Translations under genes and position numbers: made by a program
The notes under the pieces: model-generated
Seen by the model: only the letters and a program-made list of their open reading frames with translations
Databases searched by the model: none
What the model was told of the DNA's origin: nothing
Source of the DNA: Haloarcula marina
GTDB taxonomy: Archaea > Halobacteriota > Halobacteria > Halobacteriales > Haloarculaceae
Assembly (NCBI RefSeq): GCF_024218775.1
Contig: NZ_CP100405.1
Coordinates: forward strand, 124,001-188,000
Direction: 5' to 3'
Length of the DNA: 64,000 nucleotides
Shown here: positions 17,962-21,941 of the stretch, in pieces
How positions within the stretch are numbered: the first letter of the stretch is position 1
Layout of the letters: the number at the start of each line of letters is the position of its first letter

Positions 17962-18267
17962 TCAGTTCACTGCTGTCGGTGGCCGACAGCCCTGAATCCC
18001 GGGACCGCCACGGTAGCGGAACTCCTCTACAGAGAGAGTGAGCGTGGGGACGTCTGCACGACGGACGGCCGCCGTGAGTCGTCGTCGGCGTCGTCGGTCA
18101 CCGATGGATGCTGCGAGTCTGAGGACCGTTTCCTCGGCGAGGTCTGCGAGGCGTGTCCCGGTGACAGTCTCAGCCGTTTCGTCGGTCACACAGACGAGGA
18201 GCCACGGTTCTGACTCGTCGGTGTGGAGAACGACGACTTCACCCACCTCTGGGAGAGTTGCGGTCAT
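17962..18267 (-). CDS. Hypothetical 101-residue protein
   Basis: The start ATG overlaps the stop of the upstream PadR-like gene by four bases (ATGA), which indicates coupled translation. The sequence is acidic to about residue 55, then has an Arg-rich patch (DRRRRRRLTAAVRRADV). A beta-rich N-terminus (VGEVVVLHTDESEPWLLVCV) could be a small barrel. I do not recognise a family. It is probably part of a two-gene unit with the winged-helix protein. Confidence 0.6.
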   Translation of the reverse strand: MTATLPEVGEVVVLHTDESEPWLLVCVTDETAETVTGTRLADLAEETVLRLAASIGDRRRRRRLTAAVRRADVPTLTLSVEEFRYRGGPGIQGCRPPTAVN

Positions 18268-18578
18268 CGGCGCCTCCGCGACTGCAGTGCCTCGGCCGGA
18301 CAGACCGTTACCATATCCTGGGCGTGGCGATACAGGACGCTTCGACCCTGGTCGGTCAGCCGATAGGCGTTCGTTCGCTCGTCGATCGGGTCGGGTGTAA
18401 GCAGGCCCTCTTCCGCCAGTTGGTTCAGGTTCTGGTACAGACGGCTGTGGTTGATCGGGTCGGCGTAGCGGTCGTCGAGGTAGTCTTTGAGAGCGAGGCC
18501 GTATGGTTCGTCGTCGACGGCCGCGCTGGCCTCCAGCAGATCGCGCTGGAAGCCCGTGAGGTCGTAGTAGGTGGTCAT
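18264..18578 (-). CDS. PadR-like winged-helix protein
   Basis: 104 residues from the ATG at 18578; the frame extends further upstream but without protein-like sequence. The motif order fits PadR-type domains: TGFQRDLLEASAAVDDEPYGLALKDYL, NHSRLYQNLNQLAEEGLL, then the wing with TNAYRLTDQGRSVL. Such proteins are common repressors on haloarchaeal plasmids and viruses. It is coupled by ATGA overlap to the 101-residue protein. Confidence 0.75.
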   Translation of the reverse strand: MTTYYDLTGFQRDLLEASAAVDDEPYGLALKDYLDDRYADPINHSRLYQNLNQLAEEGLLTPDPIDERTNAYRLTDQGRSVLYRHAQDMVTVCPAEALQSRRRR

Positions 18579-18786
18579 AGGTGCTTGCTGGTGGTTGGTG
18601 AGCGTGCGTTGGCGAGCGATGCTTCTCGGTGTGGGTGGGAGCTCTGGTCGGTCATCGGTTGGTGCGCCGCCGTTGTTCTGGGCGGTGCCTATCCCTTGCT
18701 TCGGAGTGCGGGGTATTAGTTCTTGCCCCGTAGCAATAGTTGTAGTTAGTACGACTAATACCGGAGGCGAGTGAAACGGTGTCAAA

Positions 18787-19050
18787 GTGACAGATAAGCC
18801 GGGCCCGGATCCAACTGCTGACAGGAAATCTATCCTCGAGGCATTGGCTTTAGCGTATTCACCGGTACTTGGCACTAGTGACATTGCTGAGCGAACTGGT
18901 GTAAGTCGGCAAGCAGTGGATCAGCGGCTACGCCGGATGACAGAAGACGGACTTGTAGATACCCGAAAAATTGGACGTGCTAGGGTTTGGTGGATAACAA
19001 ACGAGGGTCGGGCCTATCTTGATCCAGTAACTGATTCGGGTAACCAGTAG
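18787..19050 (+). CDS. Small winged-helix DNA-binding protein
   Basis: 87 residues from a GTG start. It has a helix-turn-helix (LGTSDIAERTGVSRQAVDQRLRRM) and a wing (DGLVDTRKIGRARVWWITNEGR). Its C-terminal codons overlap the convergent gene at 19014-19250 by 37 bp. The two proteins share the N-terminal GPDP motif and the same domain layout, so they look like diverged duplicates. Confidence 0.72.
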   Translation: MTDKPGPDPTADRKSILEALALAYSPVLGTSDIAERTGVSRQAVDQRLRRMTEDGLVDTRKIGRARVWWITNEGRAYLDPVTDSGNQ

Positions 19051-19250
19051 ACAACAGCGCTACTCCCGACCTTCATTCGGTCAATTGTCCCTTGTTCGTT
19101 CAATTTATTGAGGCGCTGTCTTGCTCTCTCCGTCGAAAGACAAACTGCTTCTGCAATATCTCCTGTAGTCACGAATGGGGGGTCAGCTGATCGGACGGTC
19201 TCAATAATCTCTTCGTCAGTTACCTTGGGATCAGGGCCACGGGTGGACAT
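19014..19250 (-). CDS. Small winged-helix DNA-binding protein, convergent paralog
   Basis: 78 residues. It carries GPDP near the N-terminus, a helix-turn-helix (VTTGDIAEAVCLSTERARQRLNKL) and a wing (QGTIDRMKVGSSAVVYWL). Its 3' end overlaps the 87-residue paralog on the other strand. Convergent overlap means the two transcripts would be antisense to each other. Confidence 0.72.
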   Translation of the reverse strand: MSTRGPDPKVTDEEIIETVRSADPPFVTTGDIAEAVCLSTERARQRLNKLNEQGTIDRMKVGSSAVVYWLPESVTGSR

Positions 19251-19326
19251 ATTCTGTATTGCTAACTATGTTGCTATGGAGCAATAGATTTTTGGTTGTC
19301 CGGGACAACAGTATGAGCAGGAACGC

Positions 19327-19680
19327 ATGCGTAGCTGGTCGGTTTCTTACGAAATCGTCCCGGTGCCAGAACACCGAGACGCATGGTTCCTGGGAGAACC
19401 AATGGTAACTACACGAGTCTACCCACAAGAACGCATCGCCCACGAAGAACTATCCCAGCACTCGTTTTCCGGGACCGTCGATCAAATCCGCTACCGGAAG
19501 CGGCAAGAATTCCCAACCATCGTTGAAGTTGCTGAACCGGCGAGAATTGAACTTGTCGGGACTGTAGTTTCGACGCTTAGCCAGTGGTGTGAATACGCGC
19601 ACGAGGGCCGTGGCTACCGCAATCAAGCAAACATCGACCATGCGCTCGTCCAGGACTCTATCCGGGGTGTTCCGACGTGA
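19327..19680 (+). CDS. Hypothetical 117-residue protein
   Basis: The first codons read MRSWSVSYEIVPVPEHRDAW, followed by a beta-rich middle and a basic-aromatic C-terminus (WCEYAHEGRGYRNQANIDHAL). I do not recognise a family. It overlaps the next gene by four bases (GTGA), so the two are probably translated together. The position downstream of the HTH pair suggests a plasmid or provirus gene set. Confidence 0.55.
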   Translation: MRSWSVSYEIVPVPEHRDAWFLGEPMVTTRVYPQERIAHEELSQHSFSGTVDQIRYRKRQEFPTIVEVAEPARIELVGTVVSTLSQWCEYAHEGRGYRNQANIDHALVQDSIRGVPT

Positions 19681-19928
19681 GCTGTACCGTCGAGCAGCGC
19701 AAACAGGTTCGACGTGCTGCACGGGCTATTCGAGACTGTGCACCTGCCATTGCCGTCGACATCGTCGCGCCGAATGCGAGTCAGTACGACGCGTGGACCC
19801 TCGATGCCGTGTTACGGGGACCAGACGGTGTGCCGCCAGCGGTTTTGCGTGAGCTGGCGCTTGCCGGGTTGACCTTGCGGCCGACGCCGTCGCAGGCAGG
19901 GTTCCAGCATGTGACTGCGACGGCGTAG
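19677..19928 (+). CDS. Hypothetical 83-residue protein
   Basis: It starts at a GTG inside the stop of the previous gene. The sequence is helical and Ala/Arg-rich (EQRKQVRRAARAIRDCAP), ending in PTPSQAGFQHVTATA. Small proteins like this are common on haloarchaeal plasmids, but I cannot assign a function. A TTAACCAAC inverted repeat begins 12 bp after its stop. Confidence 0.55.
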   Translation: MSCTVEQRKQVRRAARAIRDCAPAIAVDIVAPNASQYDAWTLDAVLRGPDGVPPAVLRELALAGLTLRPTPSQAGFQHVTATA

Positions 19929-19939
19929 TCCAGAGATAT

Positions 19940-19979
19940 TTAACCAACATACGGGCGGGGACTGCAGACAGTTGGTTAA
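19940..19979. repeat. TTAACCAAC inverted repeat, copy 1
   Basis: The arms TTAACCAAC (19940-19948) and GTTGGTTAA (19971-19979) are separated by 22 bp. The same arms and spacing recur near the replication region at 49.3, 51.5 and 55.6 kb. The spacing places the arms about three helical turns apart, as expected for a two-site protein-binding element. Confidence 0.8.
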
Positions 19980-20097
19980 CTAGCTGAGCGAGAAACACAT
20001 ACTTTCTGCGGAGAAAATATTGCGTATGAATTGGTTGCCTTTTCAGCGAACTGTGTAATCGACTCCCTTTTCACCGGCGCCGATATAATATGTGGGA

Positions 20098-20519
20098 ATT
20101 TGAATCATTCATGAGTTCGTCTGAAACCGAGATTTCCATGTACTCACTCGAGCCGAACGACTGCTTCAATCCCTCATGGGTTCGTCTGAAACGCTATCCG
20201 CTCCGCGATTGCCGAGCGTGACACGCTGCTTCAATCCCTCATGGGTTCGTCTGAAACGGTATGTCGACGCTGACGGCGACTATAAGACCGTCGCTTCAAT
20301 CCCTCATGGGTTCGTCTGAAACTATGTCAGAAGAACCTAACCATAGTGTCACAATCGACGCTTCAATCCCTCATGGGTTCGTCTGAAACGACGGATCCCA
20401 CCAGATCGTGGAGCACCCACGGGCGCTTCAATCCCTCATGGGTTCGTCTGAAACGAGGCGCTCGTCCGTGCCCTCGAGGCCAAATCACAGCTTCAATCCC
20501 TCATGGGTTCGTCTGAAAC
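20098..20519 (-). CRISPR. Orphan CRISPR array, 7 repeats and 6 spacers, type I-B-like repeat
   Basis: Six identical 30-bp repeats start at 20163, 20228, 20293, 20360, 20425 and 20490. A degenerate seventh at 20098-20127 has six mismatches. Spacers are 35 bp, except one of 37 bp at 20323-20359. On the minus strand the repeat begins GTTTCAGACGAACCC and ends GGGATTGAAGC, as in haloarchaeal type I-B systems. That orientation and the degenerate repeat at the low-coordinate end place the leader to the right. Instead, a broken integrase gene follows directly at 20520. No cas gene is in the window. Confidence 0.95.
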
Positions 20520-21214
20520 TACCCTGCCGTTCGTGCTTCGAAGGGACGTAGATACAGTTCTGATAGTCGGATAGCTGAGGTGCAGTTCCCAACTCGGGGT
20601 AACACTCTCTGATTTGCGAGTGCGCAATCGTGATGTCTTCGAGACGAATATTCAGGAACTCACCTACCCTCATCCCGAGCTTGAGTAGCCAGATCAAAAA
20701 GAGCCGCTCCCGGATATTCGTACAGCCATGGATGATCTCAGAGATGTCGCTCTCTGTCAGGTGTGGATAGTCCTTCTCATCCGTATCGTCGGCAAGATTC
20801 ATCTCTCGTTTGGCGATGTTGAACGGGTTGTAATCCGAAGGGTGTGGGAATGCGTAATAGTCCTGCCACCATTCGTAGACTCGGCCGAGATTGTCTCGCT
20901 TCTGTTCAATCGTATTCGTCGAGTTCTCCCGTTCGTTTTGGAGGTGAGCCGCAAACCCCTTGATATGCTTCTCGTTGGGGCACGCGGGGTGTCGACCCTC
21001 GTTGGACATGAAGGCTCTCCACTGATCGAACGTGTGACGGTAGTTCTTTAGCGTCGACTCAGAGGGATTCTTCGGGAGTAAAAACCCGTTCGACATAGGC
21101 TTGGAAAAGATCAACGTCGATATCTGCAAAGTCAGCCTCGTACTGACACAGCGGATCAGTTTGTCGACCGAAAGCTTCTGCAACTTCGCCGAGGTTCTGA
21201 TTATGACTCACCAT
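20520..21214 (-). pseudogene. Tyrosine integrase pseudogene, frameshifted and cut off at the CRISPR repeat
   Basis: The intact start is the ATG at 21214 (N-terminus MVSHNQNLGEVAEAFGRQ), which runs to FTPEESL and a stop near 21063. The integrase then continues in another frame from about 21070 (ESTLKNYRHTFDQWRAFMSNEGRHP). One extra base near 21062-21068 explains this. The core-binding domain and the first catalytic Arg (LKLGMRVGEFLNIRLED) are present, but the gene ends at IYVPSKHERQGS where the CRISPR repeat begins. The H-x-x-R and Tyr motifs are missing, so it cannot be active. Confidence 0.88.
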
Positions 21215-21434: not shown

Positions 21435-21941
21435 TTAACTGAAGGTCGCAGACTCTTTCGCAGTCAACTGGAGATTCTCGGCAATAAGCACAAGATCATC
21501 GTCTTGATTACTAATCTCGATTTGTAACGTGAGAATTCCCCAGTCGTCATCCTGTTCTGAAGCGTCAACGATTTCGATAGTCCCAGAAATCGTATCGCCG
21601 ACATACACTGGATTAAGAAATCTAACCTTGTTGAATCCATAATTTACACCGAATCCGGCGTCTCTACTGATTGTGTCAACCACGAAACCATCCACGATAC
21701 CCATGATGAGGACACCGTGAGCAACGATTCCATCGATAAGTGGATGCTCAGCAGCGTATTCCGCATTGACATGGTTAGGATGAGAGCCGTCTGTTGCACC
21801 GTTGAACATGCGTATGTCAGAGTGGGTAATCGATCTTCCCGCCGTCTGGAACTGCTGACCGACTTCGAAATCCTCGTATGTCTTTGTTTCCGCGAGATAC
21901 TCGCTGAGTGAATCGTAATCTTGGAATGACTTACGTGCCAT
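21435..21941 (-). CDS. MaoC-like (R)-hydratase/dehydratase
   Basis: 168 residues, hot-dog fold. The hydratase signature is FNGATDGSHPNHVNAEYAAEHPLIDGIVAHG, with the Asp and His of the catalytic dyad. Enzymes of this family hydrate enoyl-CoA or related thioesters. It begins a run of CoA-linked enzymes (CoA-transferase, acyl-CoA synthetase, enoyl-CoA hydratase) in the AT-richer part of the window. It is transcribed away from those genes, so it is probably not in the same operon. Confidence 0.88.
   Translation of the reverse strand: MARKSFQDYDSLSEYLAETKTYEDFEVGQQFQTAGRSITHSDIRMFNGATDGSHPNHVNAEYAAEHPLIDGIVAHGVLIMGIVDGFVVDTISRDAGFGVNYGFNKVRFLNPVYVGDTISGTIEIVDASEQDDDWGILTLQIEISNQDDDLVLIAENLQLTAKESATFS

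What the first reader, a model, noticed from the sequence alone, without database searches (positions are those of the whole stretch)
20098..21214. CRISPR array that lost its leader to an integrase remnant
Repeat orientation and the degenerate repeat at 20098 place the leader at the right end. There the last perfect repeat is followed immediately by the truncated C-terminal end of an integrase. The array therefore cannot acquire spacers at a normal leader. It may be transcribed from a foreign promoter or be silent. The junction is base-exact, which suggests recombination or an integrase-linked event at a repeat.
Basis: partly seen in the sequence, partly recalled or inferred. Interest (0 to 1): 0.6.

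Follow-up and report, generated by a model that had tools for sequence, protein, structure and literature searches.

The report
Dead CRISPR array fused to integrase remnant
A short CRISPR memory array on a large Haloarcula replicon has lost its control region, and all three cas gene families searched for are absent from the genome; it now abuts a broken integrase gene, so it is most likely a silent fossil of a once-active immune system and fairly ordinary.

Summary
The array is real. Six identical 30-nt repeats plus one degenerate end repeat lie at 20098-20519. No leader is there. Four relatives' leaders align with one another (scores 31-56), but nothing on either side of this array scores above shuffled sequence. 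From 20520 onward lies an integrase pseudogene on the same strand as the crRNA. Homology runs to ERQG plus the first base of the conserved Asn codon, at the base beside the repeat. Beyond the lost leader, Cas1, Cas6 and Cas7 are undetectable in the whole 99.9%-complete genome, with working positive controls. The repeat occurs nowhere else, and no close protospacer was found. Related Haloarcula plasmids carry complete I-B loci with leader and cas genes, in pNG400 beside the same plasmid module. Best reading: an orphan I-B relic whose leader and cas genes were lost when a recombination joined its first repeat to an unrelated integrase gene. An integrase-driven event is unsupported; spacer-target recombination is possible but unproven.

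The parts
18264..19928 (.). Conserved Haloarcula plasmid module (helix-turn-helix genes and two small hypothetical ORFs at 19327-19680 and 19677-19928) immediately left of the array
   Evidence: DNA similarity to many Haloarcula plasmids ending at 19928 (one record to 19949); in pNG400, G010:C5 and G018:C15 a CRISPR array follows this module directly
20098..20127 (-). Degenerate terminal (trailer-end) repeat GTTTCAGACGAACTCATGAATGATTCAAAT
   Evidence: relatives' trailer repeats degenerate at the same 3' end
20163..20519 (-). Six identical repeats GTTTCAGACGAACCCATGAGGGATTGAAGC with five spacers between them; with the spacer at 20128-20162 six spacers in all (35, 35, 35, 37, 35, 35 nt)
   Evidence: only copies in the genome at up to 3 mismatches
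20519..20520 (-). Junction: 5' edge of the leader-proximal repeat joined to integrase coding sequence
   Evidence: Integrase reads ...H-E-R-Q-G-(A of Asn codon) up to 20520; homologues continue GNKS..RP..P
20520..20555 (-). Stretch that would be the lost leader-proximal spacer if the array recombined with its own target (hypothetical; 36 nt shown)
   Evidence: Inference; PAM test not favourable: CTG, ACT, AAC at 35, 36, 37 nt, no TTC or TAC
20520..21213 (-). Integrase (tyrosine recombinase) pseudogene: SAM-like N-terminal domain and start of the catalytic domain, one frameshift near 21070-21085, C-terminal catalytic half missing
   Evidence: Pfam PF13495, PF00589, phrog_1 integrase, homologues at 55% and below
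21435..21941 (-). MaoC-like dehydratase gene, upstream of the integrase remnant on the same strand; possible source of read-through into the array (inferred)
   Evidence: PF01575

Best explanation
This is a dead, orphan type I-B CRISPR array on a 364-kb Haloarcula replicon. It was once part of a complete plasmid-borne I-B locus, with a leader and a cas6-8-7-5-3-4-1-2 cluster on its right. A deletion or rearrangement removed the leader and cas genes and joined the leader-proximal repeat to the middle of an unrelated integrase gene, destroying both. Shown: leader absent, Cas1, Cas6 and Cas7 absent from the genome, repeat unique to this place, integrase cut mid-gene at the repeat edge. Inferred: that a complete locus was once here; that the array is silent or at most passively transcribed; that it cannot give crRNAs (no Cas6) or take up spacers (no leader, no Cas1). 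For the join itself I rank an ordinary illegitimate or microhomology deletion first, and recombination between a spacer and its target in the integrase gene second.
For: Array anatomy and orientation. Four relatives' leaders share a conserved palindrome and score 31-56 against each other; both flanks of this array score at most 18, within shuffle range. Cas1 PF01867, Cas7 PF05107 and Cas6 TIGR01877 give no hit in the 99.86%-complete genome, while all three hit Haloferax volcanii as control. Repeat found only here at up to 3 mismatches, and no I-B-type repeat at up to 7 mismatches elsewhere on C2 or C3. Complete loci exist in relatives: pHsi540, whose repeat differs by 1 nt, with leader and all cas genes; pNG400, beside the same plasmid module. 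Integrase homology and cut. The missing integrase half is not elsewhere. In type I-B haloarchaea, strong self-targeting activates microhomology end joining with deletions (PMC7521656).
Against: All six repeats are identical, so decay of the array itself is slight and the loss may be recent, or some selection could persist. The array orientation relative to the plasmid module is opposite to that in pNG400, G010:C5 and G018:C15, so the exact ancestral locus is not identified. The junction lies at or very near a repeat edge, which a random deletion would hit about 6% of the time (within 3 nt, one edge, 65-nt unit; my estimate). No relative with the intact arrangement on both sides of the junction was found.
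Confidence: 0.82

Rival explanations
1. Spacer-target recombination fossil (a sub-mechanism of the join): the leader-proximal spacer had been acquired from this integrase gene (or an identical one), and homologous recombination between that spacer and its target deleted the leader and cas genes, leaving the spacer continuous with its own protospacer. This also ended self-targeting.
For: Predicts a base-exact repeat/integrase edge, as seen. Recombination between spacers and their targets is reviewed as established for invading phages (PMC8616872, citing Watson 2018 and Varble 2019). Removes a self-targeting system, so it could be selected.
Against: No TTC (Haloarcula hispanica, 94% of acquisitions, PMC3936756) or TAC (Haloferax, PMC7521656) PAM 33-39 nt from the repeat; ACT at 36 or AAC at 37 only. 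A homology of about 36 bp is short. No second copy of this integrase exists in the genome or databases to prove a spacer ever existed.
Confidence: 0.25
2. Cas1-Cas2 half-site product (a sub-mechanism of the join): the adaptation integrase joined a long broken DNA end (in the integrase gene) to the leader-repeat junction, its natural attack site, and repair fixed the branched product, losing the leader.
For: The joined bond is the one Cas1-Cas2 attacks first (leader-repeat junction; PMC8616872), and the polarity (incoming 3' end to 5' end of repeat) fits. Needs no PAM at a set distance.
Against: No example of such a long half-site product being fixed in a genome was seen in the titles and abstracts found; cas1 is gone so the activity cannot be tested; the exactness is not proven to the base.
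Confidence: 0.08
3. Repeat-repeat recombination (a sub-mechanism of the join) with an ectopic repeat that had lain inside or beside the integrase gene of another element.
For: Solitary repeats exist in Haloarcula replicons: one copy at G010:C8:30538, one mismatch from this repeat. Recombination of viral single repeats with host arrays has been proposed (PMC8616872).
Against: Requires a repeat already placed in the integrase gene, for which there is no evidence; no exact repeat in viral contigs.
Confidence: 0.07
4. Assembly artefact at 20519/20520.
For: Reads are not available, so the join was not checked directly.
Against: Every repeat copy in the assembly is in this array; a misjoin at a repeat would leave the true continuation with another repeat copy elsewhere. 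The contig is 364 kb with only three contigs in all.
Confidence: 0.04

Closest known systems
Type I-B CRISPR-Cas locus of Haloarcula sinaiiensis plasmid pHsi540
   Same: Array repeat GTTTCAGACGAACCCATGTGGGATTGAAGC differs by one base from this one; similar spacer lengths; large Haloarcula replicon
   Different: Has leaders, 22 and 57 repeats in two arrays and a complete cas cluster; no integrase fused to a repeat
Type I-B locus of Haloarcula marismortui pNG400
   Same: A CRISPR array directly follows the same conserved plasmid module
   Different: Array in the opposite orientation with its leader next to the module, different repeat (GTTTCAGACGGACCCTTGGGCGGTTGAAGT), full cas cluster
Orphan CRISPR arrays without cas genes, regarded as degenerate systems (reviewed in PMC8616872)
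   Same: Array without any detected cas gene, intact repeats
   Different: Here the leader is lost too and the edge is fused to a cut integrase gene
Spacer-target recombination products (Varble 2019 and Watson 2018 as cited in PMC8616872)
   Same: Would give an exact repeat/target-gene edge
   Different: Recombination not shown here; expected PAM absent; no second copy of the target

Membership tests
Haloarchaeal type I-B CRISPR array | Regularly spaced repeats of about 30 nt of the GTTTCAGACG...ATTGAAGC class with unique 34-38 nt spacers | tested here: met
   within 1-2 nt of repeats of cas-bearing loci
Haloarchaeal type I-B CRISPR array | Leader with conserved palindrome directly upstream of the first repeat | tested here: not met
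   It is therefore filed as a relic of such an array, not as a complete one
Haloarchaeal type I-B CRISPR array | Degenerate trailer-end repeat | tested here: met
[quoted passage not shown]
   each with Haloferax volcanii as positive control
[quoted passage not shown]
   Needs small RNA sequencing
Orphan CRISPR array | Array with no cas genes nearby or in the genome | tested here: met
   Cas3, Cas4, Cas5 and Cas8 were not searched separately
Tyrosine recombinase (integrase) | N-terminal SAM-like domain and start of the catalytic domain | tested here: met
Tyrosine recombinase (integrase) | Catalytic C-terminal HxxR and Tyr region | tested here: not met
   not elsewhere in the genome apart from a different intact integrase (30% identity) on the chromosome
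Spacer-target recombination product | Protospacer with PAM at spacer length from the repeat | tested here: inconclusive
   No TTC or TAC at 33-39 nt; ACT at 36, AAC at 37

The most novel reading that the evidence does not exclude
A natural fossil of spacer-target homologous recombination in an archaeon: a CRISPR system that had taken a spacer from an integrase gene in its own genome recombined with that target, deleting its leader and cas genes and ending autoimmunity.
Probability: 0.22. Interest if true: 0.5.

Novelty: new member of a known kind. Interest (0 to 1): 0.2.

Why it matters
As an orphan, leaderless I-B relic it documents one more loss of CRISPR immunity from a haloarchaeal megaplasmid. 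If the join could be proven to be a spacer recombining with its own target, it would show a direct route by which self-targeting removes the whole system, which can be tested in Haloferax or Haloarcula laboratory strains.

Tried and rejected
1) Leader on the left end: the left flank (19929-20097) has a 9-bp inverted repeat (19940-19948 / 19971-19979) at the place where pNG400-type leaders sit, but similarity to four leaders is not above shuffles; rejected. 2) Loose regex search for leader palindromes on C2/C3 gave chance hits throughout this GC-rich DNA; uninformative. 3) Closer integrase relatives: none in genome or viral contigs, phages or plasmids above 55% identity. 4) Protospacers: none in phages or plasmids at E<=1 except 28 nt of the third spacer in a Halosegnis plasmid; no exact 20-mers for four of the six spacers in viral contigs; weak matches in family genomes, best 30/35 for the fifth spacer in G009:C14, in a gene matching phrog_22963 of unknown function. 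5) Spacers of relatives' arrays against integrase loci: only chance 14-21-mers. 6) Integrase-mediated insertion at a repeat: rejected because the cut is mid-gene and no common core was seen. 7) Cas6 test with PF10040 was uninformative (does not ring in Haloferax volcanii) and was replaced by TIGR01877. 8) Integrases beside the I-B loci of pHsi540 and Halomontanus rarus were compared as possible sources; neither is a close relative.

Full report
What is there. The window is part of contig C2 (364 kb) of a three-contig genome of 3.74 Mb. Its relatives place it in Haloarcula: plasmid hits to the left flank are mostly Haloarcula, and one same-genus genome reproduces the pNG400 coordinates of H. 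marismortui. Between 20098 and 20519 lie six identical 30-nt repeats and one degenerate repeat with spacers of 35, 35, 35, 37, 35 and 35 nt. On the minus strand the repeat reads GTTTCAGACGAACCCATGAGGGATTGAAGC, ending in the ATTGAAGC tag of haloarchaeal I-B crRNAs (the tag is from general knowledge of the family). The degenerate copy is at the left, the trailer side. In relatives the last repeat of an array also decays at its 3' end. So the leader should be at the right.

The leader is missing. Leaders of arrays in pHsi540 (two), pNG400 and genome G006 share a conserved palindromic core and score 31-56 against one another. The 915 nt right of the array and the 170 nt left of it score 10-18, no more than shuffled sequence. 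Further leaders of the same kind were seen in L184 and L185.

What replaced it. From 20520 to 21213 there is an integrase pseudogene on the same strand as the crRNA. It has a SAM-like N-terminal domain and the start of the catalytic domain, a frameshift near 21070-21085, and it stops where homologues continue with the conserved GNKS...RP...P and the catalytic residues. The last codons are His-Glu-Arg-Gln-Gly plus one A. Gly is nearly invariant and the following Asn codon begins with A, so homology probably runs to the last base before the repeat; it is certain only up to the Glu-Arg codons, about 8 nt away. The nearest homologue is 55% identical, so the exact base cannot be proven from DNA. 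The missing half is not in the genome; the only hit is a different intact integrase on the chromosome.

The rest of the system is gone too. Profile searches of the whole genome find no Cas1, Cas7 or Cas6, with Haloferax volcanii ringing as a control each time. The repeat occurs nowhere else at up to three mismatches, and on C2 and C3 nothing within seven mismatches. The array therefore has neither uptake nor processing machinery in this genome. The spacers have no close protospacers in phages or plasmids, and no self-target elsewhere in the genome beyond a 19-nt partial match; four of the six were also searched as exact 20-mers in viral contigs, without a match.

Where it came from. The DNA left of the array is a conserved Haloarcula plasmid module ending at 19928. 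In pNG400 and two other Haloarcula genomes an I-B array follows this module directly, although in the opposite orientation, and in pNG400 a full cas cluster comes next. The nearest repeat, one base different, is in pHsi540 with leader and full cas cluster. In pHsi540 the two leaders lie next to cas6 and cas2. I infer that this array too had its leader and cas genes on the right and lost them in one or more events.

How the join arose. A random break would fall within 3 nt of this repeat edge about 4 times in 65, so the exactness is suggestive, not decisive. Recombination between a spacer and its target gives an exact edge by necessity, and is documented in bacteria (PMC8616872). But the known PAMs TTC (PMC3936756) and TAC (PMC7521656) are not found at any spacer length from 33 to 39 nt; only ACT at 36 and AAC at 37. 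Deletions by microhomology end joining under self-targeting are known in Haloferax (PMC7521656). A Cas1-Cas2 half-site product or recombination with an ectopic repeat would also fit. I give the ordinary deletion the first place, spacer-target recombination about one chance in four. Integrase action is not supported.

Assembly. I could not check reads. A misjoin is unlikely because no second copy of the repeat exists to be confused with.

Verdict. It is an orphan relic of a known kind, of modest interest. The confidences given for the rival sub-mechanisms of the join are not exclusive of the best explanation, which covers the relic as a whole.

Noticed in passing
L139 (pNG400), L144 (G010:C5), L153 (G018:C15): In three Haloarcula replicons an I-B array with its leader follows the same small conserved plasmid module directly, which looks like a recurrent place for CRISPR loci on Haloarcula plasmids.
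   Followed up: partly
G010:C8:30538-30567 (L159 8539-8568): A solitary I-B repeat on a 51-kb Haloarcula contig, identical to the main repeat of one array of pHsi540; may be a relic, a viral single repeat or a CreA-like element.
   Followed up: no
window 19940-19979: A 9-bp perfect inverted repeat (TTAACCAAC/GTTGGTTAA, 22 nt apart) between the plasmid module and the array, at the position where leaders sit in pNG400-type loci, but without leader sequence.
   Followed up: partly
G009:C14:413492-413526 (L163): Best partial match of a spacer (fifth, 30 of 35), inside a gene of a viral protein family of unknown function (phrog_22963), flanked 5' by AAC.
   Followed up: partly
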